Virus record (IMG/VR): IMGVR_UViG_3300037809_000520
Location: 1 to 64,000 of that record
From: a virus
Reading direction: 5' to 3' (one strand)
DNA length: 64,000 bases
In this document: piece by piece, positions 5,901 through 49,600 of the stretch
Layout: each line of letters starts with the position of its first letter
Numbering within the stretch: the stretch's first letter is position 1
The notes under the pieces: model-generated
The model's input: only the letters and a program-made list of their open reading frames with translations
The model's database searches: none
What the model was told of the DNA's origin: nothing
Made by a program: the position numbers and the translations under genes

Positions 5901-5928
5901 AAAAAAAGAGGCTTAATTGCTAAGCCCC
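5901..5928 (-). terminator. Intrinsic terminator after phoH
   Basis: On the minus strand an 8-base-pair stem GGGGCTTA / TAAGCCTC (one G-U pair) encloses GCAAT and is followed by seven T residues. It begins about 16 bases after the phoH stop codon. Confidence 0.85.
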
Positions 5929-5944
5929 TTTTAAATGGTTAGAA

Positions 5945-6679
5945 TTATCGCCTAGCTTTTCCGCTAGTGCCTGAGGAGCCTTTGATAATTCCCCTGCTTT
6001 CAGCTTCTTCATAAATTTCAATCAAATTATCCACAATTGGATCTCTATGATTTTGCATTAAGGTAATAGAACACATATTTTTTACTTTACGTGCTGCTGA
6101 GTATAAAAATCTAAATCCTGATTCTCTTTTTGATTTTAAATCTACTTGATGGTCATCTCCACAAATAATCATTTTTGATCTTAAGCCTATTCTAGTTGAA
6201 ATCATCTCCATTTGTTCATGTGTAACATTTTGAGCTTCATCTACAATAATACAAGAATCTAAAAATGTTCTTCCTCTCATAAATGCTAGGGGAACAATTT
6301 CTATTTTACCACCTTCAATTAATTTTTCTACTTTTACCTTATCATATAAAGCATACATATTTTGGTAAATAGGTTGAATCCAAGGATCCATTTTTTCCCG
6401 CAAATCACCAGGTAAGAATCCAATTTCTTCTTTTGATACTGTAGGTCTTGTAATTATAATTTTTGAGTAGTGTCTTCGTATGAGACCATCTAATGCAACT
6501 TGACAAGCTAAAAGTGTTTTTCCTGATCCTGCTCTTCCAGCTAATAAAGTTAATGTACTATCTAATATTTTTTTCTTTGCTTCTTTTTGTTCTTCGTTTA
6601 AACTTATTTTAAATTTTATGGGATTCTTCACTATTCTTTGTTTTCTGTGAACTTCGTCTGTATGGGGTTTTGAAGGCAT
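5945..6679 (-). CDS. phoH: PhoH-like ATPase
   Basis: A 244-residue P-loop NTPase. Walker A is AGRAGSGKT (residues 47-55), followed by the family-specific ITRPTVSKEEIGFLPGD segment (77-92) and Walker B IIVDEAQN (144-151). GDDHQVD (about 173-180) matches the sensor region of PhoH and superfamily 1 helicase-like ATPases. PhoH is common in marine phages; its role is uncertain, perhaps in RNA or phosphate-related metabolism. The gene overlaps the end of the phosphatidylserine decarboxylase gene by 49 bases, which points to coupled translation, and it ends at a strong terminator. Confidence 0.93.
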   Translation of the reverse strand: MPSKPHTDEVHRKQRIVKNPIKFKISLNEEQKEAKKKILDSTLTLLAGRAGSGKTLLACQVALDGLIRRHYSKIIITRPTVSKEEIGFLPGDLREKMDPWIQPIYQNMYALYDKVKVEKLIEGGKIEIVPLAFMRGRTFLDSCIIVDEAQNVTHEQMEMISTRIGLRSKMIICGDDHQVDLKSKRESGFRFLYSAARKVKNMCSITLMQNHRDPIVDNLIEIYEEAESRGIIKGSSGTSGKARR

Positions 6680-7395
6680 TTTTGAGTGTGGTTTATTTTA
6701 ATTAATTTGTCAAGACCTGCATTAACATGCATTGTGTCATCTAACATGGTCTCAAACTCATATCTAGAATCTAAAGGTAGAACTAAATCTACTTGAGAGC
6801 CCCATCTAATTAAACTGAATCTTTCGTTTTGGGCACAAAGATCCCCTTGTTGTTTAAAAGGGGCTATTACATTTACGTCCTCATCGGCAATTTGTATTAA
6901 GTGGTATGTGTAATCTAAAGAAGGAACATACACTTGGTTAGACATTCTTTCATTGTACTTTAAGTACGCCATGTTATTTGGGTTGATTACTTTATTCAGT
7001 ATATCCTTCTCTACCGCTAACATGGGTTTATTTGTTGATTCAATAGGTTCTAATCTTTTATATTTTAATATACCCCCATATGGAATTCTATTAATATGAA
7101 CATCATAAAATGACATAAATATTCCAATAACTAAAGAGGGTTTATTAAATTCACTATCACCCATTACATCTTGGATAGTATAATCGATACCTTTAATTTC
7201 TAAAACTTGCTCCCCGGGTTGGACTATTTTTTGATATAATATAGTTCCATCTGAAGGGCTATAAAAATGTTCATAATCTATAAATGTAGGCCTAATTGGG
7301 TCTCTAAAGAAGAAATTATTACTTAATTCTCCAACAGACATTTTAGATAATTCTGCTACTTCTCCATTTAACCAATCTTCTAATTTTTCAGCCAT
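6631..7395 (-). CDS. psd: Phosphatidylserine decarboxylase
   Basis: A 254-residue protein with the conserved landmarks of pyruvoyl-dependent phosphatidylserine decarboxylase, which makes phosphatidylethanolamine. SPSDG (46-50) carries the catalytic Asp; FMSFYDVHINRIPYGG (93-108) carries the conserved His100; ERFSLIRWGSQVDLVLP (191-207) holds the Gly199-Ser200 self-cleavage site, where Ser becomes the pyruvoyl group. It lacks the N-terminal membrane anchor of the E. coli enzyme and is nearer the short bacterial form in length. It abuts the amidinotransferase gene (shared base at 7395) and overlaps phoH. A host-derived auxiliary metabolic gene is likely. Confidence 0.88.
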   Translation of the reverse strand: MAEKLEDWLNGEVAELSKMSVGELSNNFFFRDPIRPTFIDYEHFYSPSDGTILYQKIVQPGEQVLEIKGIDYTIQDVMGDSEFNKPSLVIGIFMSFYDVHINRIPYGGILKYKRLEPIESTNKPMLAVEKDILNKVINPNNMAYLKYNERMSNQVYVPSLDYTYHLIQIADEDVNVIAPFKQQGDLCAQNERFSLIRWGSQVDLVLPLDSRYEFETMLDDTMHVNAGLDKLIKINHTQKCLQNPIQTKFTENKE

Positions 7396-8309
7396 TATAG
7401 GAGGGATTTAAAATGATCAACTCTATTTAAGTGCATTACCATGCAACTTAACATAGCTCCTGATTTCATATATTCTGATAGATTAAATATTACAGGTTCC
7501 ATTCCTTCATTAGAACATATTTTTTCTAATGATTCAATTTTATGCTTTTCTCCTTCATAAAATTCATCTCCTTTTTTCATTTCGGAAATATTGGAAGCAC
7601 ATAAAATCATATTTCCCAATCTAACAGAATTAGCCATTCCATAAGTTGAATCTTCAGCATCTATATCTATTATATTTGTATATTTGCTTATTTGTGCTAA
7701 TTCTTCTTTATCATATAGTTCAGTGCAAACCATAGTTGAATGTGTATTTAACGGGAATATACTACAATCTAGGTGGTACATATATTCGTCTACCATTTTA
7801 ACTTTAATAATTTTCATATCAAAATTTTCCTCCATCCAATGATATGTTTTTATGTCTGATCTAATATCATACCCACCTATATAAACATTATCCTTTAAAT
7901 ATTTAATATCTGCTTCTCCTTCCCATTTATGGGGGGATATATGAGTTTTATAACCCATCTGATTGAAAAATTTTTCACCTACAAATTCTTCACCCTGTCT
8001 TGGGGGAGAAGTATAATTAGATAATAGGATATGATTTTCATCTTTAATGTGGGGTAACTGTAAGCCTAAATTTGCAACATAAATCAAATCTTGGAAATTA
8101 CCTTCTGCTGGTAATAAATGGACTAGAGATTGGCCTGCCATAAAATTATACAGATCCATAAATTGTTTATATGCTTTTGGTTTGTTTATGGTTAATTCTT
8201 TTTCTGACATTTCTTTCATCCAAACATTATTGGGATCATTGGTTGAAAATGTATGTGGAAAATTCATTACATAACTTTGAATAGGTAACTGTGATGGTGT
8301 TTCTTTCAT
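7395..8309 (-). CDS. Amidinotransferase / dimethylargininase-type enzyme
   Basis: A 304-residue protein of the arginine deiminase superfamily (guanidino-group modifying enzymes). Visible signatures are HKWEGEADI (127-135, substrate-binding acidic residues), YHLDCSIFPL (178-187, with catalytic His179) and SGAMLSCMVMHLN (283-295, with nucleophile Cys289). This order of Glu/Asp, His, then C-terminal Cys matches amidinotransferase and DDAH-like hydrolases. Substrate cannot be told from sequence: arginine, methylarginine or another guanidino compound are all possible. It begins the block with psd and phoH, after the capsid gene terminator. Confidence 0.8.
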   Translation of the reverse strand: MKETPSQLPIQSYVMNFPHTFSTNDPNNVWMKEMSEKELTINKPKAYKQFMDLYNFMAGQSLVHLLPAEGNFQDLIYVANLGLQLPHIKDENHILLSNYTSPPRQGEEFVGEKFFNQMGYKTHISPHKWEGEADIKYLKDNVYIGGYDIRSDIKTYHWMEENFDMKIIKVKMVDEYMYHLDCSIFPLNTHSTMVCTELYDKEELAQISKYTNIIDIDAEDSTYGMANSVRLGNMILCASNISEMKKGDEFYEGEKHKIESLEKICSNEGMEPVIFNLSEYMKSGAMLSCMVMHLNRVDHFKSLL

Positions 8310-8375: not shown

Positions 8376-8403
8376 AAAAAAAAAGCCCCGCTAATGCGGG
8401 GCT
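8376..8403 (-). terminator. Intrinsic terminator after the major capsid gene
   Basis: The minus strand forms a perfect 8-base-pair stem AGCCCCGC / GCGGGGCT with an ATTA loop, followed by a run of about nine T residues. It ends the scaffold-capsid transcript. Confidence 0.93.
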
Positions 8404-8427
8404 CTTAATTTATTTAAAATCTATTGA

Positions 8428-10071
8428 TTAAAGAGTGTTTAATCCTTCAACATAAATTTTACCATAAAATTCCGGGCGTACCACTTTCTTAGCATAACGA
8501 GTAAGTAAACCTTTTCTTGGAGTGAAGGTTGCTGGATCGTATACTAAAGGAGTCATGATTAACGGAATGTATGGAGCAAATACAGCACCAGCTTCTAAGA
8601 ACTGACCACCTCTGAATCCCATTAAAATGGTATTTTCAGTCATGTATGGGTTCTTATAAACAGTGTATCTTGAATTGATAGTACCTGCTTTTTGTACACC
8701 AAATGCGTAGCTCATTTTAGCTGCATCACCATCAGAAGTACTAGCAAATCCTGGAATAGATTCGATAATAGTAGCTACTGTTGGAGAACATACCATGAAA
8801 TTAGCTCCACCTCTAAGAGTTTTCTGGTGAATTATATTACTTAACTTCTGAACTTTAGTTCCTAAAGTTTGGAACCATTGTCCTTGTGAGTTATAGAAAC
8901 CTAAATCTGCATCTACAACACCTGTTGAAGCTAATGATAGGTTGTTCTGTGCACTCCAGTACTCAGTACCAGCAGCAGCAGATTCGATCAACATATCAAG
9001 AATTTCTAAATCAATTTCTAATGAGATATACTCACTCATAATTGAAGTTAATTCAGCTTCAGCATCCAAAGAATGGTAAGCGTTAAGATCTTGAGCGAAC
9101 TCAGGAGTCCAAACAGCTTTCAATTTACGAGTCTTAGCAACAATTGCTTCTGACTGCATTTGAATGTTGATTTCAGGAATAGTGATTGGATCATTATTAC
9201 CATTTAAGTTAGTGTTACCTTCTTCAAAATCACCTCTTTGAGCGTCATTTGTTTGCATTAAGTACTCAACTTTTAAACCAGTACCAGCTTCAATAACTGA
9301 TGAACTAACATAAAATTCAATGTTTTCACCATTGATTTTAGTAAATTGTGGGTATTGAGTTGTTACTGCTGGAAATGTTGTCGTTGCCGAACCTGATAAA
9401 TAGAAACCTCTAACGGCTCTTTCATCAAAGTTAGGTAATGAAGAAGTTGGAATTGCTAAACATACAATCTGATCAGTAGCACCGGCAACATAAGATTGAG
9501 ATACTGAAGAATCAGCATTTAAATCTGTGTACCAATCAACAGAACTAGAAGCTACTGTATAAGCAGCAGATTGAGTGTTGTTAATTGAATATCCAAATCT
9601 ACCAGCACCATAAAGACCACCTGTAGCACCGTTACCAAATGGAGTATTTCCATCAGTAGCACCATATAGTGAATCACCTGCTGTGAATGGTTGTTTAGTA
9701 GTTCCGTATTGGAAATCTAAATAAAATACTAGACCAGAAGGTAGATTCATTGGTTGAACCGAAACGAATTCTTTCGCTGCGATTTGACCAAATACCTTTC
9801 TTACTAGTGGTAAAGCTACACCCGCCCATTGTGCTCCTGTTCCAGGAGTAAATGTACCTGCTCCAGGAAGTGGACCACCGGTATTGCTTTCTTCCATAAC
9901 TAATTGCTTAGCTTGGTTTTCAAGGATCATAGACATATTGTTTTTCTCAGTTTCGTTACCGATACCTTCTAACAAGCCTGTCTTGTTCCATTTGTTGGCT
10001 AATCTTGCAGCATCACTTTGTAATGACTTGTAAGGATTAGCGCTTTCTAAAAGAGAATTTAATTGACTCAT
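8428..10071 (-). CDS. gp23: Major capsid protein, gp23-like
   Basis: A 547-residue HK97-fold capsid protein of the T4 gp23 family, about the length of T4 gp23 (521). After a Glu-rich N-terminal region of about 60 residues comes QWAGVALPLVRKVFGQI and EFVSVQPMNLPSGLVFYLDF, strongly typical of gp23. The N-terminal region holds candidate prohead protease sites (ILE at 49-51, LLE at 33-35), consistent with T4, where about 65 residues are removed. Codon use looks more GC-rich than its neighbours, as expected for a highly expressed gene. It follows the scaffold gene by 43 bases and ends at a strong terminator. Confidence 0.95.
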   Translation of the reverse strand: MSQLNSLLESANPYKSLQSDAARLANKWNKTGLLEGIGNETEKNNMSMILENQAKQLVMEESNTGGPLPGAGTFTPGTGAQWAGVALPLVRKVFGQIAAKEFVSVQPMNLPSGLVFYLDFQYGTTKQPFTAGDSLYGATDGNTPFGNGATGGLYGAGRFGYSINNTQSAAYTVASSSVDWYTDLNADSSVSQSYVAGATDQIVCLAIPTSSLPNFDERAVRGFYLSGSATTTFPAVTTQYPQFTKINGENIEFYVSSSVIEAGTGLKVEYLMQTNDAQRGDFEEGNTNLNGNNDPITIPEINIQMQSEAIVAKTRKLKAVWTPEFAQDLNAYHSLDAEAELTSIMSEYISLEIDLEILDMLIESAAAGTEYWSAQNNLSLASTGVVDADLGFYNSQGQWFQTLGTKVQKLSNIIHQKTLRGGANFMVCSPTVATIIESIPGFASTSDGDAAKMSYAFGVQKAGTINSRYTVYKNPYMTENTILMGFRGGQFLEAGAVFAPYIPLIMTPLVYDPATFTPRKGLLTRYAKKVVRPEFYGKIYVEGLNTL

Positions 10072-19759: not shown

Positions 19760-19768
19760 TATAAATAT
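19760..19768 (-). promoter_or_regulatory. Putative late promoter box (GATATTTATA)
   Basis: Ends 14 bases before the start at 19745; its last base coincides with the terminal base of the kinase gene ending at 19768. Confidence 0.45.
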
Positions 19769-20298
19769 CACGAAAAAATTGATTGTTTAACTAATTTTGT
19801 ACGTTCTTCTGTTGATCCCTTAATCTCAATTAAATTTTTAATTTTATGTCTATATCTAATAATTAATAATTGGATAGATTCATCAATTTTTTTTCTATAA
19901 TCTGCATCTGTTTCTCGTACACCATTATTTTCAATTTCTACTCCTTCAGGAGAAACATAAAATATATAATCATATTCATCTAACATATTACTTGCAAATG
20001 AACAAAAATCATCTGCTTCCCCATAATACATTGAAGTTGATTGTTTAGCAAAAGCCATTACATCTATAATTGTTCTATCTGTTATAATATTATCTTGCAT
20101 TAATTCACTAGCTCTTTCAGCTAAAAATACAGCTTGACCCTTTACGGTTGAGTCTGTATTTAAAGGAATACTCATTTCCATTAAATATTTTGAACGTTCA
20201 GTTCTAAATTTATATAATTGAAATTCTGGTAATTTAGCTAAAGCGTTAACTAAAGTTGTTTTACCTACTGACATTGTACCACAAAAACCTATTTTCAT
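19768..20298 (-). CDS. NadR-like / AAA-type P-loop kinase
   Basis: A 176-residue P-loop protein. Walker A is GTMSVGKTTL (7-16). The following helix, an acidic substrate region and IITDRTIIDVMAFA (about 96-109) match the ATP-binding kinase domain found in NadR and related deoxynucleoside or ribosylnicotinamide kinases. ETDADYRKKIDESIQ (about 140-154) is the lid-like helix. The substrate is not certain: nicotinamide riboside, a nucleoside, or a polynucleotide end are possible. It lies 1 base downstream of a cupin gene, in a tight four-gene cluster. Confidence 0.7.
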   Translation of the reverse strand: MKIGFCGTMSVGKTTLVNALAKLPEFQLYKFRTERSKYLMEMSIPLNTDSTVKGQAVFLAERASELMQDNIITDRTIIDVMAFAKQSTSMYYGEADDFCSFASNMLDEYDYIFYVSPEGVEIENNGVRETDADYRKKIDESIQLLIIRYRHKIKNLIEIKGSTEERTKLVKQSIFS

Positions 20299-20299
20299 A

Positions 20300-20707
20300 T
20301 TAAAACGGTAAATTTAAAGGATCTAATTGGGAAGATCCCATTCCCACTCTATAACTATCACTGTCGAAATGTTGTGTTGATACCTCAAATATACAACTTC
20401 CTTCTTCAAGAGCCAACATTTGGTGGGGTTGACCAGGCATTAAATGGATGCAATCCCCTTCTGTTACTTCAACTGTTCTTTGTTCAGCATTTTCAGTATC
20501 AATATATTTGTATAAGAATTTTCCTTTAGAAATATACCATGCTTCATCTTTTAGGAGATGATAATGCATTGAAAATGATTTATCTTTTTTAAATACTAAA
20601 AGTTTTCCACAGTATTTTTCATTATTAATAATCCACAATTCATGACCCCATGCTTTTTCATGAATTTCTCCTTTGTAAGGCATTGCCTCTAATGTATGAT
20701 CCCTCAT
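20300..20707 (-). CDS. Cupin-fold protein
   Basis: A 135-residue single-domain cupin. Metal-binding residues are visible in the expected spacing: His48 and His50 in SMHYHLLKDEAW, Glu55, and His95 in LMPGQPHQML. The opening KAWGHELWI resembles the start of the mannose-6-phosphate isomerase / sugar-nucleotide cupin families. Reaction unknown; it could be a sugar isomerase, a small-molecule oxygenase, or a binding protein. Neighbours are a kinase and a small unknown gene, all separated by 1 base, so probably co-translated. Confidence 0.75.
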   Translation of the reverse strand: MRDHTLEAMPYKGEIHEKAWGHELWIINNEKYCGKLLVFKKDKSFSMHYHLLKDEAWYISKGKFLYKYIDTENAEQRTVEVTEGDCIHLMPGQPHQMLALEEGSCIFEVSTQHFDSDSYRVGMGSSQLDPLNLPF

Positions 20708-20986: not shown

Positions 20987-22330
20987 TTATTTTAATAATT
21001 GTTCTCCTACTAATGTTCCTTGTGCCCCCGATACTGTAATACCTCTGGCACTTAAAGCGTCACCCACAAAATGTACATTCGGATATTTTGTTAAACTTAA
21101 ATCATTATAATTAACTAGGGGTTCTGGTGATAGATATTTTACTTCTGGGATGTAAATTCCCCAATCATCTTTAAGTGTTGGAAATACTTTTTTCATATCC
21201 TCAATGAAATCTTCTATATAATCATAATAACCTTTAAATGATTTTTTAACTATATCTAAAGATTTAGTGGGCATAGCATCAACTAAATCACCTTCACTTG
21301 TCATTCCTCTTTCACGTGATGGGCTATAATATAAACCCGAATTAGCTTTACGAGCATATCTACCAATACCTTTACTACAATCCATCCATTGTGAATTTAC
21401 TAATTTAACTAATTCTCTAGACCAATCAAATGGTTTATCAATGCCTTGAATTTCCATTAAAATCCCAAAATTAGTCATATTATTTCTATGTTCTTCTCCT
21501 TTTTTAGCATGTCCATTGTAGCTAACATCTCCATACGTTTGCTCAACGGCAACATATGCTGCATTGTTGTTTGTACAGAAAGAACGTAGTGATACTCCTT
21601 TGTCTTCGAATTTACGATATAACTTAAAATCATAACTTACATCAATTAGTTTTTGGAAGTGGTTTTGTGGTGCTTCAAATCGAACACCTATTTGTACTGG
21701 CTTTGGTTCTGTAGGAAGATCATATTTTTCAGCTAATTTCTTACCGAAGTCAATTCCTGATTTGCCAACACCAAATATAAGTTTATCATATGATAAGGTG
21801 AAATTATCTACTTCACTAGCATTGGTTACCACTATTTGTGAATCAAATTTAATATCGGTTACTTTTTCTTCCCATCTAAATTCTACACCACCATCTACTA
21901 AATAATTATACCAATTTTTACCTATTTCATGTAAGTAATCTGTACCTACGTGCCATACAGGGAATAAGCGTAAGCCAAAATAGGGTTTAATAAAATCTGG
22001 TTCTGCTTGGGGGTCTGAGCATTGTACTTCCTCAGGCTTGGGATGGAATCTTTTAAAATTATTAATTACTTGATCAAATAATTCCATTGCTTTTTCATCT
22101 CCTGTGTATTTTGATAATTGACCACCAATGGATGTATGGTAAGTTAATTTACCATCAGACCAACCACCTGCTCCTAAGAAACCAGTCATTACTTCTTCAG
22201 GTTTTCTATCATATGGGTTTTTACCCATATCAATAATAGTGATATTACCTTTAAAGTTGTTATCTACAAGTTTTGTAGCGGCATTTACTCCTGCTACACC
22301 TGCTCCTACAATTACTACATTTTTACTCAT
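20987..22330 (-). CDS. FAD-dependent oxidoreductase (dehydrogenase-like)
   Basis: A 447-residue flavoprotein. The N-terminal Rossmann motif is VVIVGAGVAGVNAATKL (5-21) with the G-x-G-x-x-G dinucleotide signature, followed by an acidic residue at the end of the second strand (ITIIDMG). Near residues 50-65 GFLGAGGWSDGKL is characteristic of the NAD(FAD)-utilising dehydrogenase group. The C-terminus has NVHFVGDALSARGITVSGAQ, the usual second FAD-binding block (G-D). Cytoplasmic; substrate unknown. It starts the metabolic cluster and has a promoter-like box CGTATATTAA upstream. Confidence 0.85.
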   Translation of the reverse strand: MSKNVVIVGAGVAGVNAATKLVDNNFKGNITIIDMGKNPYDRKPEEVMTGFLGAGGWSDGKLTYHTSIGGQLSKYTGDEKAMELFDQVINNFKRFHPKPEEVQCSDPQAEPDFIKPYFGLRLFPVWHVGTDYLHEIGKNWYNYLVDGGVEFRWEEKVTDIKFDSQIVVTNASEVDNFTLSYDKLIFGVGKSGIDFGKKLAEKYDLPTEPKPVQIGVRFEAPQNHFQKLIDVSYDFKLYRKFEDKGVSLRSFCTNNNAAYVAVEQTYGDVSYNGHAKKGEEHRNNMTNFGILMEIQGIDKPFDWSRELVKLVNSQWMDCSKGIGRYARKANSGLYYSPSRERGMTSEGDLVDAMPTKSLDIVKKSFKGYYDYIEDFIEDMKKVFPTLKDDWGIYIPEVKYLSPEPLVNYNDLSLTKYPNVHFVGDALSARGITVSGAQGTLVGEQLLK

Positions 22331-23216: not shown

Positions 23217-24089
23217 TTAATAATCCCATTCTTCATCATCTTCTTCATCATCATAACCATAATCATCATCATCATCATAATCTTCTTCATCTTCATACTC
23301 AGCATCATAATTAAACATATCCTCATCTGATTCAGTATAATTTCCATCTTTACTATCTATATAATCTAATATTTTTTCTAAAGCAAATTCAGTTAATCGT
23401 TCATATATTTTTTCTTCATCTCCTGAAGATGACATAATTTTACTAAAAATACTTTTTAATGTCGATTGTATTTCTGAAGGAATATCTGTTGAATTAATTA
23501 AAAATGAATGAGCAGGACCTGCTGTTTCAGTACCATATCCTTTATAATAGAAATCTCCATCATTATAATAACGATAAATAATTTTATTTATAGCTCTTAA
23601 TAATTCACCTTCAATTGTATCAGCATTACCTTGTCCAGGTACTAATTTTTCAAAGTAATCATTACTTCTTTTTTCTAATTCACCTCCAACCCATTCTTTA
23701 ATCTTTTTCTTTTTTGATATTGCTGTGTCTTTACACATCTCATCAAATTCAGGTCCGTCTTGAGAGCATGCCCATTTTCTTTGTTTTTCAGAGAAAACTT
23801 CTTTTAGTTTTTGATTTTCATTTAACTTAAACTGTTGTGTAAGTTTTTCCCAAGAATAGTTTTTATCAACCCACCCTTGTAATTTTTCTTCATCCCAATC
23901 TTTCTTAAATTTATTAGCATTATTAAGATCTGTTAAGATTTTTAATTTTTTAGCAGTACGTTCGTTCCACTCTTTATTTGATAATTCCTTTTCTGCTTTT
24001 CGACTTACATCTATGGCATCCCACCTTGATTCGGTTGATTCTGTTAATCTACCTTCTGCTAAATATTTTTTTAAATCGAAATTTTTCAT
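23217..24089 (-). CDS. Putative internal head protein with capsid-targeting tag
   Basis: A 290-residue protein. I chose the ATG at 24087-24089 rather than a longer open frame because it gives the shared tag MKNFDLKKYLAEGRLTES and because the extension overlaps the upstream gene. L-A-E (10-12) before Gly is a match to the T4 prohead protease site. The body is highly charged and helical; the last 45 residues are almost entirely Asp, Glu and Tyr (DYDDDDDYGYDDEEDDEEW). EEKLQGWVDKNYSWEKL is the clearest ordered part. Function unknown; I infer packaging into the head and ejection with the DNA. Confidence 0.65.
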   Translation of the reverse strand: MKNFDLKKYLAEGRLTESTESRWDAIDVSRKAEKELSNKEWNERTAKKLKILTDLNNANKFKKDWDEEKLQGWVDKNYSWEKLTQQFKLNENQKLKEVFSEKQRKWACSQDGPEFDEMCKDTAISKKKKIKEWVGGELEKRSNDYFEKLVPGQGNADTIEGELLRAINKIIYRYYNDGDFYYKGYGTETAGPAHSFLINSTDIPSEIQSTLKSIFSKIMSSSGDEEKIYERLTEFALEKILDYIDSKDGNYTESDEDMFNYDAEYEDEEDYDDDDDYGYDDEEDDEEWDY

Positions 24090-24099
24090 TTGTTTTATT

Positions 24100-24606
24100 T
24101 TACGGTGTAGTAGAATATATATATTCGTTAAATTGAAGATTGATATACTTGTCATATGGCATCGTACCCACATTATAAGCAAATTTATCTTTACCAATAG
24201 GAGCTTCATTTTTATTAATAAACCGTTTACGTTTTGTAACAAAATCTATTAAATATTGCTCTGGGTCTTCTTGTTTTTTTAATTGAGGGTGATTAGCTAA
24301 TATTGGTTTAATTCTTTTTACTATATCTTCTACCGAATCTCTTTCGTATGCCATTTCGGCTATATCTTCTTCTTTAATTACACCTTCAGATAAATCTATA
24401 TATGATTTCAAATCATCAAGTAAATCTTTATCTGTAGAGTTTTCATAGGCATCAGGTTCAAAATTTCCATCGAGTTCATCTATATAATCTTCAATATATT
24501 CATCCTCTATGCCTTTTTCTTTTCCTAATTTCCTAACTCTTGAAGCAATTTCATCTGCAGTTACACCTTCTGTAAGGAATTGTCTAAATCTGTATAGTTC
24601 TTTCAT
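24100..24606 (-). CDS. Putative internal head protein with tag variant
   Basis: A 168-residue acidic protein beginning MKELYRFRQFLTEGVTADE, a divergent version of the tag with cleavage-like L-T-E (11-13) before Gly. Most of the body is acidic and helical (residues about 25-110), followed by KKQEDPEQYLIDFVTKRKRF and a non-charged tail with several Tyr. No enzymatic motif. It lies 10 bases upstream of the gene starting at 24089 and 7 bases after the previous member of the array. Confidence 0.6.
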   Translation of the reverse strand: MKELYRFRQFLTEGVTADEIASRVRKLGKEKGIEDEYIEDYIDELDGNFEPDAYENSTDKDLLDDLKSYIDLSEGVIKEEDIAEMAYERDSVEDIVKRIKPILANHPQLKKQEDPEQYLIDFVTKRKRFINKNEAPIGKDKFAYNVGTMPYDKYINLQFNEYIYSTTP

Positions 24607-24613
24607 TTTATTT

Positions 24614-24964
24614 TTATATTATATCTTGTATTTTAGTATATTGATCTGCAGTTAGAACATCAAAAGTATAATCTTCAAAATCACCACCATCATAAAGTAT
24701 AGTTGATACTGCTCCAGCAATATCATTTCTTAATTCTTTTGAATCAGCATTTAAAGCTTTAACTGCCTTAACATAATCTTTAAATGTGTTCATAGCTTCA
24801 TCGGATACTTTTCCAAATTCAGCATCAACACCACCAGCATCAATTACATCATCATTTCCTACTTTAATTTCTCCTGCTGCCCATTCTGACCAGTAGTCTC
24901 TTAAATTATCTTCTTTTAGTAGCCTACCTTCAGCTAAATATTTTTTTAAATTGAAATTTTCCAT
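24614..24964 (-). CDS. Putative internal head protein with capsid-targeting tag
   Basis: A 116-residue protein; the ATG at 24962-24964 was chosen over a longer frame (start 24997) because it yields the common tag MENFNLKKYLAEGRLLKED and avoids overlap with the upstream gene. The L-A-E site (10-12) is followed by an acidic, helical body of about 95 residues with DAGGVDAEFGKVSDEAM and YDGGDFEDYTFDVL. No recognisable fold. Cleavage at L-A-E would release a protein of about 104 residues. Confidence 0.62.
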   Translation of the reverse strand: MENFNLKKYLAEGRLLKEDNLRDYWSEWAAGEIKVGNDDVIDAGGVDAEFGKVSDEAMNTFKDYVKAVKALNADSKELRNDIAGAVSTILYDGGDFEDYTFDVLTADQYTKIQDII

Positions 24965-24980
24965 TTTTATTTTATTTATT

Positions 24981-25382
24981 TTATCTCCAAAATTCACTTC
25001 CTTCTACCATCCAACGTTCAAAATCTTTATCAGAATGTACAAACTCTACACCTTTTGGATTTCCTATAAAGTAATCATCAAGCATTTGTTCTGTATCAAT
25101 TTCAAATCCTAAATACTCTGACATTTTATCTTCATTAGTTTCTAAAAATTTGTCTCCATTTTCGGATGTAAAGTCTTTTTTATCTTCTTCAACGTTTGCA
25201 GGATCAGTAAAATATCCATAGTTAATATAATCTATAAATTCTTCTTCTAATTTTTTTACATCAACATCCATGTATTTGGTATAACTAAAGAAATCAAGTA
25301 ATTCTTGTCCTCTTAGCTTAGTGATGTCTTCTTTTAATAGTTTACTTTCAGCTAAATACTTTTTTAAATTGAAATTTTCCAT
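24981..25382 (-). CDS. Putative internal head protein with capsid-targeting tag
   Basis: A 133-residue protein with tag MENFNLKKYLAESKLLKED, the L-A-E site being followed by Ser. The body is acidic (DVKKLEEEFIDYINYGYF, EEDKKDFTSENGDKF) and ends with an aromatic-rich segment (DFERWMVEGSEFWR). Unrelated in sequence to its neighbours past residue 20. It starts 11 bases after the preceding gene and is followed 16 bases later by the next start. Confidence 0.62.
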   Translation of the reverse strand: MENFNLKKYLAESKLLKEDITKLRGQELLDFFSYTKYMDVDVKKLEEEFIDYINYGYFTDPANVEEDKKDFTSENGDKFLETNEDKMSEYLGFEIDTEQMLDDYFIGNPKGVEFVHSDKDFERWMVEGSEFWR

Positions 25383-25393
25383 TTACTTTTATT

Positions 25394-25762
25394 TTAAAAG
25401 TTAAGTGCTATTTTTTTAGCTGTTTCTCCTTCTTCAGGGGTTATTAATCCTTGTTTAACATGAACATCAATAGCATCTAGAACAGACTCACGATCTGCTC
25501 CTGTTCCAACATCTAAATTTGCTTGTTTTACCCACTCGTCTTCTAAAGCCATGTAATCTTCAATAGACATTGTTTTAGGAGCGGGTAAAATATTACTTTT
25601 AATCCATCCAGCATCTTCTACATCAAAGCCAAAATCATCCGGTGAGGTAAGTACATCTTTAATGTAGTCATTACCACCAAACATAATAGTGGTGTCAACC
25701 ATTATCTCTTCTTTTAATAGTTTACTTTCAGCTAAATATTTTTTTAAGTCAAATTCTTTCAT
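25394..25762 (-). CDS. Putative internal head protein with capsid-targeting tag
   Basis: A 122-residue protein with tag MKEFDLKKYLAESKLLKEE and the L-A-E site at 10-12. The body differs from other members: TTIMFGGNDYIKDVL and an EF-hand-free acidic region, then EEGETAKKIALNF at the C-terminus. It contains both helical and beta-prone stretches and no Cys. No function can be assigned. Confidence 0.62.
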   Translation of the reverse strand: MKEFDLKKYLAESKLLKEEIMVDTTIMFGGNDYIKDVLTSPDDFGFDVEDAGWIKSNILPAPKTMSIEDYMALEDEWVKQANLDVGTGADRESVLDAIDVHVKQGLITPEEGETAKKIALNF

Positions 25763-25773
25763 TGTTATATTTT

Positions 25774-26295
25774 TTATATAAAATTAGATAAACCCCATTC
25801 CCCATCTCCTTCTGAGCTAGGCATATAATATTTTATTAGGGGTTTGAATATTTTCTCCATACCCGATTTTCTAACCTTAATAATTTCATCTTCGATTCTT
25901 GTTGATCTAATACTACTTATAAGCTTTTCAAATTCGGGTGTGATTTCATCCAATTTGAAGGTGAAAATAGCGTAATTCCCCATCATATCAACACCCGGTT
26001 GTTTCCTTCTTTCGTTTATGTATTTTCCTTTAAAAAAGGAATCACCTATTGTTTTTACAAATACATCTGTGGGTGTATCTTCATCACCAACAGATCCATT
26101 AACCCTTATAGCTGTTACACCCCCTATTGGTTTCTCCTCAAACACCCTTGATATTTCCTCTTTGATTATTTTACGTAGTTCCGATTTTTTCATTTTATTT
26201 GGTTTTATAAAATCTTTATACCTTCCTGTTTTAATTAAATGTTCTTCCAATAGAGGATTTTTTGATATAAATGTTTTTAAGTCAAAATCTTTCAT
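25774..26295 (-). CDS. Tagged protein with two different N-terminal tags in tandem
   Basis: A 173-residue protein. It begins with the first tag type (MKDFDLKTFISKNPLLEEHL) and then, at residue 35, carries the second tag type (MKKSELRKIIKEEISRVFEE) that starts other genes. The gene therefore looks like a fusion of two tagged openings, or the true start could be the internal Met at 26193. The body (about 55-173) has alternating beta strands (AIRVNGSVGDEDTPTDVFVK) and basic patches, with a folded-domain look, unlike the acidic members. Function unknown. Confidence 0.6.
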   Translation of the reverse strand: MKDFDLKTFISKNPLLEEHLIKTGRYKDFIKPNKMKKSELRKIIKEEISRVFEEKPIGGVTAIRVNGSVGDEDTPTDVFVKTIGDSFFKGKYINERRKQPGVDMMGNYAIFTFKLDEITPEFEKLISSIRSTRIEDEIIKVRKSGMEKIFKPLIKYYMPSSEGDGEWGLSNFI

Positions 26296-26315
26296 TTTTA
26301 TTTTATTGGTTTATT

Positions 26316-27347
26316 TTAATTAAATCTTCTGCTTATATTAGTTGCTTCACCAGCTACTACTTTACCATTTTGTAAAAGAACAACTCCATTAGCTGAATCA
26401 CCATCAGCTTCTGAATTGTTAATAAGTCTATTTAGTTCTTCATAATACATATCCAAATTATCTTCTATGTGTTTATTAAAGACACTTTCCCAATTATCTC
26501 CAGCTGCATCTAATTCATCTGTAAGTCCAAATTTTCTTTCAAAGTGTTCGATATCCCAATAACTTTTAATAGAATCTTTTATATATTCTTCTTTACTATC
26601 ATAAACAATATAATCAGGACCTTCATCATTCCAAAATATCATGTGGTACATTCCTGGTTTAAGGTCAATCATATATTCATCACTAAATTGTTCTTCTTCA
26701 GAAGAAGCATCATGTTCAGCTCTATTTCCTATATAAAGTTCTTGATAATCATCATGGCTAAGTATTGTAGCCATATCTATATCTTCTTTTAATAGCTTAC
26801 CTTCAGCTAAACCTGATAGTTTATCTTTAGCCCATTCTTTAGCCAATTTTACGGCTTCATCTTTAGAATAAAATCCTTGTTCTACAGCATTCATTATCTC
26901 ATAATAGTCATCGCTTACAATTTCTTCAGCAGATGCATCTATAATACCCTGAAGATATACTTCAGGTTCTACTACCATAGCACCCATTGCACCTTCAAAT
27001 TCATCTTCCATTTCTGGGAAGTCTATAGCTTCATTTAATAGCTTACCTTCAGCTAAATATTTTTTTAAATCGAAATTTTCCATTTGGGTTTGTTTTATAT
27101 TATGTAATTTATCATACCATGCTTTATATTCGGGATCTCTAAGAAGATTAGCTGTAACCATATCTGACATTGCATCAAATCCACCATTATCAAAACGATC
27201 TAGTTCATACTGAGCATCATCTGGGTCTTTAACGTATTTCATGATAATATCAAGTAACGCATCCATACTTTCATCATCAAAGACTGTAGGTTCGTTTTCA
27301 AATAGCTTACCTTCAGCTAAATATTTTTTTAAATCGAAATCTTTCAT
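26316..27347 (-). CDS. Fusion of two or three tagged internal head proteins
   Basis: A 343-residue protein. It starts MKDFDLKKYLAEGKLFENE, but a second complete tag, MENFDLKKYLAEGKLLNEA, begins at residue 89 (27083), and a third partial copy, LAEGKLLKEDI, at about residue 179 (near 26812). Just before the second tag the text HNIKQTQ looks like a translated intergenic gap. Each tag would be a prohead protease site, so the product may be cut into three pieces of about 75-160 residues. Bodies are acidic and unrelated. An alternative is separate genes with internal starts. Confidence 0.62.
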   Translation of the reverse strand: MKDFDLKKYLAEGKLFENEPTVFDDESMDALLDIIMKYVKDPDDAQYELDRFDNGGFDAMSDMVTANLLRDPEYKAWYDKLHNIKQTQMENFDLKKYLAEGKLLNEAIDFPEMEDEFEGAMGAMVVEPEVYLQGIIDASAEEIVSDDYYEIMNAVEQGFYSKDEAVKLAKEWAKDKLSGLAEGKLLKEDIDMATILSHDDYQELYIGNRAEHDASSEEEQFSDEYMIDLKPGMYHMIFWNDEGPDYIVYDSKEEYIKDSIKSYWDIEHFERKFGLTDELDAAGDNWESVFNKHIEDNLDMYYEELNRLINNSEADGDSANGVVLLQNGKVVAGEATNISRRFN

Positions 27348-43679: not shown

Positions 43680-46600
43680 TTACTCTATTGGATATTTTTT
43701 AGTATCATTATCTTCATCGGCTCTGAAAGCATTTTTAGCACTTAATTGATTTATTATAGTTTGTACATTTCTTTTTTGCTGAGCTGAAAAATCATTAGGG
43801 ATTAAATATCCTGATGGTGATAGGGTTTTAACTCCTTCTGAGCCTGTTGGGGCTGTTTGGTATATTACTACTCTATCATCAGCTTCAATTCTTCTTCTAA
43901 GAGTAAAATTAAAAATTTGACCTGATGGAATAGGAATATCTAAGGTTCTTGGATCTGGGTGTACCATTACTTTATCAAAAGTATGGGCAGATGCAGTCAT
44001 TCTTACAAGACTTGGTCCTCTTACCGAAACCATTGATGATTTCATAGTATCCCCATATCCATCTGGAGGGAATATAGAGTTTTCATATTCATCATTTGGA
44101 CCATTATCTGTAATAGTAAAAGTTTGAGTGTATAATCCACCCACAATAGAATTAGGTCCTACTGAGTTGTAATCTACTCTGATTTCATCTCCTACTTGAA
44201 ATAATATAGGTTGTTGGAAATCTTCAAAATTTGTAACATTATCATCACTGTTATTAGTAGTAAGTTGAAAATCTTCATAAACATAATTAGAAGGATTTGC
44301 AAAAAATGGCTCTTTAACTAATTGAATAGTATCTGCAGATCCTCCTGTATTTTTTATATTATTTGGTATTCCCGGGAGGACTACAGCTACCCCACTTATA
44401 GAAGCTGTAGAATAGATACTTCTTGAAACATATTGGTTAAAAGTATTAACCAATGCTAATCCTCTACCAGCATAACATATTGATGTTCCTAAATCTACAC
44501 TTGCACTAACCCCGAAACTTGATGACATTATTAATGATGCTCCCATCAAATATAATGAAGAATCTGTACTTCCTGTTAATAGTGAAAAAGCAGATTGGGA
44601 TTGGACCGTTGAAAATAGTACACTAGCAGTTAAATAATATGATGATGATGGTAATGTAATTGTATTAATAGCTGTCCCCGCAAGCCCATACATCCTTGAC
44701 CAACTTGAACTTACAAAACTTTGTGTAGTTGCATGGTTATTTTTTTCAATTTGGTTAGTTATTATATTTTGATATTCCATTGATCCTTGATATATCTGAC
44801 TTTCTCCTACTTTAAGTGAAGTATAATTAATAGTAGCAGAAGAACCTGATTTAGATATTTTTCCTTGGTTATAGGCTACTAATGCTTTTCTATCAACTTC
44901 AAATGTACTTCTAACTTCTGTTAAATTTTCACCACTTCCATCAACTTTAATTACAACTGGGTTTTCTGGGGCTTTTTCCCCTTGCACACTATCTAAAGGA
45001 CACTCAATAAGTTGATCAATATTAAAAGTATAACTACCCCATAATTCATTGGATTGTTTAGATGTTCTAAAATGAGCAAAATAAATAGGATGTTTTGCAA
45101 TAGTATTAACTTCTACATTTATTGAAGGCATTGAACCTGGGAGTGAATCCCCACCATAAACTGGGCTTTGAGCATAAGTATAAACTACTGGCGCACTGGA
45201 TTTATTATGAACTAATATTCCATTAGCATAATAATTATGGTTATTACTAACACTTGATAAATAGTATACAGTAGTTAATTTTATTTCGGTTGTTATCGAT
45301 GAAACTATAATATCATCCCCTTTTATATCTTGACAGATATCATTAACTTCTATTTTAGATGCTTTTACCCATCCTTTTTCTTTCACATAAAATGGGTGTT
45401 CTTCAGTAGTATTAATTATATTACCATCATTAAAAGTTATAATTATTATTGACTCGGCTTCATGAGATGATACATCACCAACAATTCCTTCTTCATTCTT
45501 ATTATCAAGTTCATTATAAGTTATAATACTTTCACCCTTTACTACATCTTCAATATTTTTAGTACTACCATTAAATAGTGATATTTGGGTTCCAGGAGTG
45601 AAGCAGAGAACAAAAGTTTGGAGAGATTGATTGGATCCCGATAATAAAGTACCAGGTACCCCCCCATTTAAATAAGCAATTTCACTTCCTGATGGTGTAT
45701 ATGAATTATAATTAGCACTTTGTAAAGTACTCCCCACATATCTTGGAAGAATTGATGATTTTTGAGTATAAAAACTATCAGGTATATCTGCTTTAATAGC
45801 TGATCCTGATATAATAGGTATTACATTTGAAGGTACACCTGATGATCCTGTTGAAGAACCTCCATCAAATTCTGCTACTTGTAAGTAAGTATTAGCTCTA
45901 CTTCCAGTAATATTATTAATTAAAGGGTTAAATGGAGAGTTATTAAATATTGTTAAATTTGGAAGTTGAGGTGATGGAGTTATATTTTGTAAACCTTGGT
46001 TTGAGGTTGGAGTAAATATAGGGGTTGATGAACCACTTAATGCTCTACTTTGTAGTTGATTATAAACCCATCCTTGTCCTACTCCTGATGTGTTTGAAAA
46101 AGAAATTTTCCCATCAATAACTGTTAAATTTTGACTAAAATAATTACCTACTAAACCATATATATCTTCTGTTGTTGGTGTGCCTGTATAATTTGGAATT
46201 TCATATGTAAATTGTTCATTAAATGCTAAAGTATCTGTATTATCTACAGGATTATTATCAGAATCATAACTAATATTATTAAATGCCGTTATTATTGGGG
46301 CATAATTACCAAAATCTCCATAAGATCCTGTCCATGTAGTTCCTACAAAAGTTGCACTACCACTTCCGGGTTTTGGGGCTGAGCCTTTAATAATCCAACC
46401 TAAAGCTTCTGAAGAAATATAATCAAAATTAGACATATATATAGGGACTGTAATTGGTCCTGTAAGAGCATCTTCATATCCTCCACCCTGTGGTATATTT
46501 TGATCTAATCTAATAACTCTAGCATTGTTTGTTGAGGGATTATTAAACCAATATTTTGTTAGTCCATATGCATTTGATCCTATATTTCCATATGCTGTAG

Positions 46601-49600
46601 CTGTGGATGCTACCTGTTTAGTAATTATATCATTTCCCCCAAAGAAGGATGAAATTAAAATATTACTATCTAAATTTCCCAATAATCCTGTTTGATCAAA
46701 ATCAACAGGACCTGTTATAGGATCAAAAAAAGTATTATTAATTGATCCTGATATATCAAATTTAAGATAAGGTCCTACATCATTAGGAACAATTTGTCCA
46801 TCTTGAATTCCAAACATACCTGATGCTGAAACTGGTGGGTGAGGAATTGCCTGTAGAGGAAGTAAATTATTATCATCATATCCTAATAAACCTGCGGGTT
46901 CATAAGATTGTGCTGCAGTATTTCCTAATACATCCATTAGAGTAGGAAGAATTAATCCTACAACCCAAAAATTATGGTTATCTAAATGAGATTGTTGAAT
47001 GAAAATAGATCCTGTTAAAGTGGAGTTTGGATTATTTGCTTCCCAATTATTAAAATCATCTTGCAATTCATCTAATTTACCGTATTCTTTTTGATTTACA
47101 ACTAAATTAAATGAAAATGAAGGATAAGTATTAATTGGAGTTCCATAAGAGTTACTCCATTGTCCTTTACTTGAGGTAATTGCTAATTTATAAGATATAT
47201 CATTTATTTCAGCTGTTGTGTAGGGATTATCTAACAGTGATTGGGTTGTAACTATTATTTCACTTCCGCTAAATTCTCCATTATAAAATTCATCCTGTGA
47301 TTTATGTATTTCATAAACACTACCAGATATAGTTTCATTTCTTACAATGTAAGATTGTGTATTAAAGGAATTCCATATACTTGATGAATATGGAATTGGG
47401 GTTGTAGGAGATCCTATAAAATCATTATTTGTGGCAGCAACTGAAGCTAAAGGTGTGAAATAAATATATGATAAATTAACAGATTTTGGGGTAGCAGGAT
47501 CTGACATTAAATCTAAACCTTTAACCCAAAATGATATGTCTTCTTCTGGCAGCATTTCATAATACGATGTGCTTGCAGGAGTGTTAATTGGAGTCAATGA
47601 AGCTGAGGATATAATATCTGTGCCTATAATACCTCTTTTTGAAGATGAAACAGCAAATTCAAACCCCTCATCATATCCTAAGAAATTAGTTGTGTTAGAA
47701 TTAAAAAATTTAAATCTTGTTTTTAAAGGTTGTTTTAATCTAATACCTTGTGTGGGTCCTGAACCAAAATTTGAATCTACTATATCTCCATAACTATTTA
47801 TTACTCCACCAGCTCTAATAAGGTTAGTGTATTGACTAGGGATATTAGTGGGTGATGTTTGTGAGTAAAACAAGAAATAAGCAGATTGAGTTACTTCAAC
47901 ATTATAAGGATCTAATACCCCACCTGTTCCTCCTCCTATAGTAGCTACATCAATACTTCCGGTAATTTCTAAATCTCTATATGAAATGGGGCTATTTATT
48001 CCTTCAGCTGTTGATTGACCCCCTACTACGGACCCCGTTTCTGGTGTGTAAGCTATTATAGTATTTGGATTAACTTTTACAGGGACGCGGCGATTGCGCT
48101 CCAACATATGTTGTTTAATTATAACACCTGTAGTTACGCTAGTACGTGCTGGAACATATGATTTAATGGCTTTAAATAATGAATTATCAAAATATTTAAT
48201 TAATCTTAAATAATCCCAAACATCACCTTCTGTATATTTTTTAAAATATTCGTTTGCAATTTGTCTTAATTTTGGATAATAAGACTCTGTTGAATCATAA
48301 GCAAATCTAGGATCTGCTAACACATCAGAAATAACACCATATCCATAAGTTGCTATTATATCATCATTAACCTCGTCTTGAGGTGAAAAACCTACTTCTA
48401 GACTTGTTATATCCTCAGTATAACTCTGACTTATTAAATAATCTTGATCTATACTTCTATATTTAGATAATACTGTACCATAATCCTCACCATCATTAAC
48501 TTGAATTTTATTTGAAATTCTATTTCTAATACCAATTGCTGGTTGATCTAAAAAGTAAGTTTCTACATTAGGTTTACTATATGTGTAGATTGATGCTGCC
48601 TCATATCCTATAAAATCATAACTTGAAGTTAAAGCACTAGTAGCAGGATCAATAAATGATTGGGTAAATATCATAGGTGCTGAGCCTGTTATTGCAGGGT
48701 GTGAAGATGATATTAATGTTGTAAAAGATTGACTTATAGATGATGTAAATTTATATTCTAGCTCATTACCCAAAGGAGCTCTAAAATTAACTATATCAAA
48801 TGAAGATTCAGACCCTGTAACATTATTACCCTCAACAGACTCTGGATTCATTACAAAATCATTAAAGGTTTCTTTTGAAATATTATTTGAATAATATCTA
48901 AATTCTTGAAAGGATCCTGAAAATATTTTAGCTCCTTCATTTAATACCTCAGACATTACATCTGAACCAGACACATATCCTCCTACATAAACTCCATCAA
49001 TATCAGATACCCCAAATCTATTCCATGATTCATTTATAGAAGGTGAACTTGCTGAAGGATCATCATATATTGTACTATTATATGTTCCCCCTCCATATCC
49101 TGAATTAAAAGCTACATTAGCTGAACTCATACTCACTGATCCTGACCACCCTAATGAATTACCATCCCAACCATCTACTTGCTTATTAGCCGCAAATAAA
49201 GTATAGGTAGTAGCATCCGCACTATCGTTAGTATGAGTATCTCTTTGTAATAATACACTCCACCAACCCCCATCAAAGAAGGGTAAGGAAATATCATTTG
49301 ATATTTGTACTCCTCCATCTGCTGTTGAAGCAGACATATAAAATCTTAATTTACCATAATTGTAATAATCACTAAAACTAGATCCTGAATATGATCCTGA
49401 TGGTTGATCTTCATAAAATAAACCAATCCCCCAATCCATTTGTTTGTCATTAGTTCCATTTGATTTTTTAACAGCTAATGATTGACTATAAAATTTACCC
49501 CCATAACTTGATGAAGGATGACCTGTAGTTTTAAATCTAAAAGCAACACCATCTGGTACTATATACTCATTGTCCGCTATTTTGTTACGTTGTAATGGCA

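What the first reader, a model, noticed from the sequence alone, without database searches (positions are those of the whole stretch)
6631..7395. Phage-encoded phosphatidylserine decarboxylase with intact self-processing site
All signature elements are present: SPSDG, the DVH-x-N-R-x-P-x-G block, and Gly199-Ser200 at the pyruvoyl-forming site. Phosphatidylethanolamine synthesis genes are unusual in T4-like phages. The gene may change host membrane lipids during infection, affect lysis timing, or supply ethanolamine phospholipid for a membrane-related step.
Basis: partly seen in the sequence, partly recalled or inferred. Interest (0 to 1): 0.7.

Follow-up and report, generated by a model that had tools for sequence, protein, structure and literature searches.

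The report
Phage two-enzyme arginine-amine module
A virus gene that looks like a membrane-lipid enzyme is one half of a conserved two-gene unit, shared by several phage groups and some soil bacteria, that more likely turns the amino acid arginine into a small amine such as putrescine than makes membrane lipid.

Summary
Window 6631-7395 (minus strand, 254 aa) is a PF02666 protein (E 2.5e-22) with Asp49, His100 and Gly199-Ser200 invariant in 21 aligned relatives. The lipid interpretation is probably wrong. The protein forms a separate clade from ordinary PSDs (98/98 support) and lacks their N-terminal membrane helix. The phages carry no detectable CDP-alcohol phosphatidyltransferase-type PssA (0 of 7 records). 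It is almost never found without a guanidino-modifying enzyme (here 7395-8309), whose predicted fold is closest to ArgZ/AgrE arginine dihydrolase (Z 33.7; next family 26.7).

The link is strong: adjacent in 78 of 80 IMG/VR loci (the other two cut off); both present in 45 of 45 GenBank phage records with this PSD and in the same 12 of 200 Pseudonocardiaceae genomes. Two lineages add an agmatine-deiminase-like protein.

Best reading: a soluble pyruvoyl amino-acid decarboxylase plus dihydrolase converting arginine to putrescine (0.45). No activity was measured. The Campylobacter phage homologues are already annotated singly; my library searches found no paper describing the two as a module.

The parts
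6631..7395 (-). PSD-superfamily pyruvoyl decarboxylase (254 aa); self-processing site Gly199-Ser200; Asp49 and His100 of the processing triad
   Evidence: AF2 model pLDDT 82.4
7395..8309 (-). Guanidino-group-modifying enzyme (304 aa), ArgZ/arginine-dihydrolase-like; its last base is the first base of the PSD gene (stop/start overlap, likely translational coupling)
   Evidence: AF2 model pLDDT 88.6, best PDB match ArgZ Z 33.7; HMM match to ArgZ/AgrE E 2.6e-27
5945..6679 (-). PhoH-like ATPase, third gene of the same unit, overlaps the PSD gene by 49 bases
   Evidence: PhoH present in 71 of 71 GME loci with more than 1.5 kb downstream
8381..8406 (-). Intrinsic-terminator-like hairpin between gp23 and the GME gene (11 pairs, 7 GC, T-tract)
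5904..5932 (-). Intrinsic-terminator-like hairpin after PhoH (13 pairs); with 8381-8406 it brackets GME-PSD-PhoH as one unit
8428..10071 (-). Context: gp23 major capsid protein upstream of the unit
   Evidence: PF07068 E 2e-76

Best explanation
The gene encodes a soluble, self-processing pyruvoyl decarboxylase that works with the enzyme encoded just upstream, an ArgZ-like arginine dihydrolase. Together they turn host arginine into putrescine during infection: arginine is hydrolysed to ornithine by the GME and ornithine is decarboxylated by the PSD-like enzyme, or arginine is decarboxylated to agmatine and the GME acts on agmatine. Shown: both genes exist with intact catalytic residues, are inherited as a pair across phages and bacteria, and the GME model has the ArgZ fold. 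Inferred: self-cleavage, substrates, reaction order, the product, and its use (for example neutralising packaged DNA or replenishing polyamines). Separate estimates: the two proteins act in one pathway or complex 0.9; the substrate is a soluble amino acid or its derivative rather than phosphatidylserine 0.75; the net reaction is arginine to putrescine 0.45.
For: Pairing in phages: 78 of 80 IMG/VR loci have GME directly upstream, the other two begin at or inside the PSD gene; in the reverse search 79 of 80 GME loci have PSD directly downstream, the 80th ends 72 bp past GME. All 45 of 45 GenBank phage records with PSD also have GME, although in Campylobacter phage NCTC12673 the two lie about 42 kb apart. 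Pairing in bacteria: 10 of 11 genome-contig loci; in 200 Pseudonocardiaceae genomes the same 12 hold both, and 14 of 14 PSD copies have a GME next to them. GME fold: ArgZ/AgrE Z 33.4-33.7 (ranks 1-7), then AstB 26.7, DDAH about 26, amidinotransferases 22.7-24.3, agmatine deiminases about 20-21; sequence HMM hits only ArgZ/AgrE. PSD model: aligns to E. coli PSD (Z 10.8), to the tryptophan decarboxylase PsiD (9.8) and to an Aspergillus oryzae arginine decarboxylase (9.1, 8.9), so the superfamily contains soluble amino-acid decarboxylases. An agmatine-deiminase-family protein (PF04371) is present in Bacteroides phage SJC03 and lies between GME and PSD in L096. No N-terminal membrane helix. Published C. 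jejuni transcriptome (PMC6024767, passages): argBCD up 2.7-3.3 fold by 120 min after infection by NCTC 12673, a phage that carries both genes; compatible with arginine drain but not specific, as leuACD also rose.
Against: No activity is measured. NCBIfam scores for arginine dihydrolase (83.5 of 450 bits) and agmatine deiminase (32-50 of 382) are far below cut-offs. No spermidine synthase (PF01564) or CN_hydrolase (PF00795) in any of 7 phage records; PF04371 is absent from 6 of the 7 phage records tested. In 6 of 16 Pseudonocardiaceae GME copies the catalytic-Cys position is A, S or R while the PSD motif is intact in 14 of 14, so in those bacteria the GME cannot be a thiol dihydrolase. Bacterial neighbours are transporters and unrelated genes, not polyamine genes. 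PSD fold Z-scores tie with unrelated PTS IIA folds (11.9).
Confidence: 0.45

Rival explanations
1. A true phosphatidylserine decarboxylase that makes phosphatidylethanolamine from host phosphatidylserine, remodelling the host membrane (first reader's reading and the GenBank annotation of Campylobacter phage homologues).
For: PF02666 at 80 bits; processing triad intact; E. coli PSD is the only solved protein the profile hits (E 8.6e-9).
Against: No membrane segment in 21 of 21; separate clade; clade profile scores 320-390 bits against at most 28 bits for the other PSD-type matches in the same genomes (two of these, L118 and L121, were read as ordinary PSDs); no PF01066 PssA in 7 phage records (PssA of the PLD type was not searched); fixed partner is an arginine-family enzyme.
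Confidence: 0.12
2. The pair makes a different amine or guanidino compound that is attached to phage DNA or to a protein, or (in actinobacteria) exported: the GME as amidinotransferase or hydrolase, the PSD-like enzyme decarboxylating an amino-acid-derived intermediate, as in hypermodified-thymidine pathways (recalled).
For: In SJC03 the pair sits beside dCTP deaminase/dUTPase-like and IMPDH-like genes, and in NCTC12673 the GME lies between primase-helicase gp41 and sliding clamp gp45; ABC exporter genes near the pair in 5 actinobacterial loci.
Against: In the window group the pair sits in a head-gene block between gp23 and PhoH, not with DNA metabolism; the GME fold is 9-11 Z units nearer to ArgZ than to amidinotransferases. 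DNA-modification genes were not searched for.
Confidence: 0.2
3. The GME acts mainly as a binding or regulatory partner of the decarboxylase (a heteromer), with its own catalysis dispensable in some lineages.
For: 6 of 16 Pseudonocardiaceae GMEs lack the catalytic Cys, and some lack the catalytic His, yet remain adjacent to an intact PSD (14 of 14).
Against: In the phage sequences aligned (A2: 9 of 9, with Campylobacter and Bacteroides phages) Cys289, His179 and Asn80 are invariant, and GME is under strong purifying selection (dN/dS 0.02-0.18), so catalysis seems required there.
Confidence: 0.15

Closest known systems
Campylobacter Fletchervirus PSD and 'amidinotransferase' (NCTC12673 gp085 and gp044)
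   Same: Homologous pair, both in the genome of a T4-like phage; already annotated
   Different: 35-39% identity, genes about 42 kb apart, PSD next to GroES; not described as a pair in the records
Phosphatidylserine / archaetidylserine decarboxylase, short form (PRK05305, TIGR00164)
   Same: Same Pfam family, same processing residues and G-S site
   Different: The ordinary ones read here have an N-terminal membrane helix; this clade has none and scores far below the NCBIfam cut-offs
Aspergillus oryzae arginine decarboxylase (9jer, 9jf5) and PsiD tryptophan decarboxylase (8zia)
   Same: PSD-type fold acting on free amino acids; structural Z 9.1/8.9 and 9.8; A. oryzae ADC listed as pyruvoyl-dependent in PMC12283126 (passage)
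   Different: 13-14% identity, longer chains, eukaryotic; no sequence-profile hit
ArgZ / AgrE arginine dihydrolase (cyanobacteria)
   Same: GME model Z 33.7, 264 residues, 2.0 A; HMM E 2.6e-27; Asn71 and the FEG, RS and YHLD motifs conserved
   Different: 21% identity; ArgZ is fused to ornithine cyclodeaminase, here the partner is a decarboxylase
Phage SpeD-derived pyruvoyl ornithine/arginine decarboxylases (PMC9992855, passages)
   Same: Phage-encoded pyruvoyl decarboxylases proposed to raise host polyamines
   Different: Different protein fold (AdoMetDC family); PSD and arginine dihydrolase do not occur in that paper's text

Membership tests
Phosphatidylserine decarboxylase (PE-forming) | PF02666 domain above gathering score | tested here: met
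   80 bits against 22
Phosphatidylserine decarboxylase (PE-forming) | Asp-His-Ser processing residues and G-S cleavage site | tested here: met
   Asp49, His100, Gly199-Ser200 invariant in 21 of 21
Phosphatidylserine decarboxylase (PE-forming) | NCBIfam equivalog cut-offs for PSD/ASD | tested here: not met
   best 71.2 of 183 bits
Phosphatidylserine decarboxylase (PE-forming) | N-terminal membrane segment typical of the short form | tested here: not met
   max KD19 0.95 in the window protein; 0.84-1.28 in 21 of 21 clade members, 1.97-3.04 in 6 of 6 ordinary ones
Phosphatidylserine decarboxylase (PE-forming) | Decarboxylates phosphatidylserine | not testable with these tools
   needs enzyme assay
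Arginine dihydrolase (ArgZ-type GME) | ArgZ fold, nearer than to other GME families | tested here: met
   Z 33.7 against 26.7 for the next family
Arginine dihydrolase (ArgZ-type GME) | Catalytic Asn71 and Cys264 (named in PDB titles 6juz and 6jv1) with the FEG / RS / YHLD motifs | tested here: met
   Asn80, Glu130-Gly131, Arg150, His179, Cys289 invariant in A2, 9 of 9; Asn80 and the motifs aligned to ArgZ/AgrE; Cys289 to Cys264 inferred from the range ends 298 to 273. Cys not kept in 6 of 16 Pseudonocardiaceae copies
Arginine dihydrolase (ArgZ-type GME) | NCBIfam NF052232 cut-off | tested here: not met
   83.5 of 450 bits
Arginine dihydrolase (ArgZ-type GME) | Produces ornithine from arginine | not testable with these tools
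   needs enzyme assay
Fungal PSD-type arginine/tryptophan decarboxylase | Specific relatedness above other PSD-fold proteins | tested here: inconclusive
   Z 8.9-9.8 against 10.8 for E. coli PSD, within or near the tie range; no profile hit

The most novel reading that the evidence does not exclude
An undescribed, mobile two-enzyme module, conserved from actinobacteria to Campylobacter, Bacteroides and marine T4-like phages. In it a PSD-fold pyruvoyl decarboxylase and an ArgZ-like guanidino enzyme form a dedicated complex that channels arginine to putrescine (or a new amine), with the guanidino enzyme kept even where its own catalysis is lost. It would be a new route from arginine to polyamine, distinct from the SpeA, SpeC and SpeD-derived routes.
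Probability: 0.3. Interest if true: 0.78.

Novelty: new variant of a known kind. Interest (0 to 1): 0.6.

Why it matters
Genes annotated as lipid enzymes in phages have been read as auxiliary metabolic genes for membranes or host responses; an ocean survey speculates on psd in that way (PMC11360552, passages). If this clade is an amino-acid decarboxylase, those readings need correcting for it, and a common marine and gut phage group would gain a concrete, testable way of redirecting host arginine into amines, in the window group from a unit placed among head genes. Both proteins match PHROG families of unknown function (phrog_12670 and phrog_12759), so one pair of assays would inform two families at once.

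Tried and rejected
A PSD-PhoH gene fusion seemed to exist in L046 and L073, but translation shows a stop codon between the two in both; rejected. The sizes for L018, L029, L033, L045, L046 and L073 ran through stops and were corrected before alignment.

A link to bleomycin or tallysomycin clusters was considered because the NCTC12673 record cites AF210249_12 (recalled as the bleomycin cluster) and Streptoalloteichus carries the pair; ORFs around the second S. hindustanus copy showed nothing recognisable as NRPS by their opening residues, but they were not scanned with Pfam; left open.

Neighbour genes in actinobacteria: ABC exporter in 5 loci, MatE in one, EamA in one, xanthine/uracil permease in one; no conserved polyamine gene. 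ORF picks in the GC-rich loci used a GC3 filter, so genes may be missed.

Spermidine synthase and CN_hydrolase: none in 7 phage records. Papers on ArgZ, AgrE and A. oryzae ADC are not held. Literature searches; none listed a paper on this pair.

Rows left out: A3 and A4 omit L097 (frameshifted); A4 also omits the GME of L091 (frameshifted) and the Campylobacter and Bacteroides phage GMEs, which are in A2. The IMG/VR loci are the best 80 of 189 and of 209, and many come from related metagenomes, so they are not independent. L087 is a phage contig inside a Flavobacteriales MAG, and L096 carries an endonuclease VII gene, so it may be phage too. Of 12 ordinary PSD loci tried for hydropathy, six gave no usable ORF and were dropped; the tree uses the remaining 6, and long branches meet at L096/L098. 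A first motif scan missed minus-strand copies and was replaced.

Full report
What is there. The ORF 6631-7395 lies on the minus strand and encodes 254 aa. It matches Pfam PF02666 at 80 bits. The predicted structure (pLDDT 82.4) aligns with E. coli PSD (Z 10.8, residues 10-198 to 39-252, i.e. up to just before the cleavage site of the E. coli enzyme, recalled as Gly253-Ser254). Self-processing is therefore likely, but not shown.

Surroundings. The window is a T4-like phage fragment (G000 is a virus record of 67,258 bases) with gp23 upstream at 8428-10071. On the same strand follow a guanidino-modifying enzyme (GME, 7395-8309), the PSD-like gene, and PhoH (5945-6679). The GME stop and the PSD start share a base, and PSD and PhoH overlap by 49 bases. 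Terminator-like hairpins at 8381-8406 and 5904-5932 bracket the three genes, suggesting one transcription unit.

Linkage in phages. In IMG/VR, 189 relatives of the PSD were found and 80 kept. GME is directly upstream in 78 of the 80, and the other two contigs begin at or inside the PSD gene. Searching from the GME side, 209 were found and 80 kept: 79 have PSD directly downstream, the 80th contig ends 72 bp past the GME, and PhoH follows in 71 of 71 with room. In 50,697 GenBank phage records, 45 have the PSD (39 Campylobacter, 6 Bacteroides) and 46 have the GME; every one of the 45 is among the 46 (compared by accession). In the Bacteroides phage SJC03 the two are adjacent; in Campylobacter phage NCTC12673 they are about 42 kb apart. 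Retention of both after separation argues for a shared function rather than hitch-hiking.

Linkage in bacteria. A scan of about 85,000 species genomes found 11 loci at 35-93% identity. Ten have a GME homologue in the same locus. L087 is a phage contig in a Flavobacteriales MAG, L096 is perhaps phage (there a third gene lies between the two), and the other eight are bacterial loci (Allokutzneria, two Streptoalloteichus, Streptosporangium, two Thermoleophilaceae copies, Solirubrobacterales, Eisenbacteria). L090 has none. Bacterial gene order is PSD then GME, the reverse of the phage order, so the association was made more than once or rearranged. In 200 Pseudonocardiaceae genomes, 12 hold the PSD clade (14 copies) and the same 12 hold the GME clade (16 copies); all 14 PSDs have a GME beside them. 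In 296 Actinomycetota genomes the clade is rare: two matches score above 150 bits, one of them in the centre genome itself.

Not an ordinary PSD. The profile scores full-length clade members at 320-390 bits, while the other PSD-type matches in the same genomes score at most 28 bits; pieces of the frameshifted L097 copy score 44-187, and a contig-end fragment in G007 40.7. Seven further matches at 76-91 bits in the Actinomycetota sample include four of the six ordinary PSDs used as controls. A tree of 22 clade members and 6 ordinary PSDs separates them with 98/98 support. Ordinary short PSDs have an N-terminal hydrophobic segment (maximum KD19 1.97-3.04, 6 of 6); clade members do not (0.84-1.28, 21 of 21). 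All 15 NCBIfam matches are below cut-off. A Flavobacteriales MAG that contains a relative of this phage has an ordinary PSD of its own (124.8 bits). No CDP-alcohol phosphatidyltransferase was found in 7 phage records, while the search rang in 14 of 14 control genomes; PLD-type PssA was not searched.

The partner. The GME model (pLDDT 88.6) matches ArgZ/AgrE arginine dihydrolases at Z 33.4-33.7, with AstB at 26.7, DDAH near 26, amidinotransferases 22.7-24.3 and agmatine deiminases near 20-21. A profile search of all PDB sequences hits only ArgZ/AgrE (six sequences, E 2.6e-27 to 2.6e-23). Asn80 aligns with ArgZ Asn71, and the FEG, RS and YHLD motifs are kept; Cys289 falls at Cys264 by the alignment range. 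ArgZ makes ornithine from arginine (established knowledge; PDB titles name it arginine dihydrolase). An ornithine decarboxylase next to it would give putrescine. The PSD fold is known to serve free amino acids: A. oryzae arginine decarboxylase and PsiD (PMC12283126 passage). Two lineages with the pair also carry a PF04371 agmatine-deiminase-family protein: SJC03 (350 aa) and, between GME and PSD, L096 (273 aa, with LDGGN, GHADG and a C-terminal GLMNC motif); both score far below the agmatine-deiminase equivalog cut-off. This points to arginine-derived amines, but does not decide between the ornithine and the agmatine order.

Against this reading. In 6 of 16 Pseudonocardiaceae GMEs the Cys is replaced by A, S or R, and in a seventh (L159) the His is lost, while PSD is intact in 14 of 14. 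So in part of that family the GME is retained without its usual catalysis, which suggests a complex or a regulatory role. No spermidine synthase or CN_hydrolase is found in 7 phage records. The C. jejuni transcriptome after NCTC 12673 infection shows argBCD up 2.7-3.3 fold at 120 min (PMC6024767, passages); leucine genes rise as well, so this is only compatible.

Selection. dN/dS is 0.08-0.15 for PSD and 0.02-0.18 for GME against eight phage relatives: both products matter to the phage.

Verdict. The lipid interpretation is unlikely (0.12). Pathway or complex partnership with the GME is very likely (0.9). Net arginine-to-putrescine conversion is the best specific mechanism (0.45). The Campylobacter phage genes were already annotated singly; in ten library searches I found no paper on the pair as a module.

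Noticed in passing
window 24071-27347 (minus strand; motif starts at 24071, 24946, 25364, 25744, 27065, 27329): Six copies of a leader F(D/N)LKKYLAE(S/G)(K/R)L at the start of small proteins. It resembles the T4 capsid-targeting sequence with LxE prohead-protease sites (recalled), so these may be a family of internal head proteins.
   Followed up: partly
window 43680-51677 (minus strand), residues 2026-2158: A 2665-aa tail-region protein carries a HINT/intein-like domain (PF07591 E 1.2e-10; PF14890 below cut-off).
   Followed up: partly
window 20987-22330 (minus strand): A 447-aa pyridine-nucleotide-disulphide-type FAD oxidoreductase (PF07992 E 1.4e-9) near a cupin gene at 20300-20707 and an AAA_28 gene at 19768-20298 in a phage structural region.
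   Followed up: no
L160:6639-7721 and L161:5744-6826: Two Pseudonocardiaceae genomes hold an additional GME copy without a PSD, followed in both by a 334-aa ORF; the one in L160 is a GNAT acetyltransferase, with a squalene/phytoene synthase gene nearby.
   Followed up: partly
L259 (IMGVR_UViG_3300032296_003307): The gp23-GME-PSD-PhoH order also occurs on a 268,739-bp viral contig, much larger than the 150-170 kb relatives.
   Followed up: no
L002:5776-10320 (Bacteroides phage SJC03): In SJC03 the pair lies next to dCTP deaminase/dUTPase-like and IMPDH-like genes, a nucleotide-metabolism setting unlike the head-gene setting of the window.
   Followed up: partly
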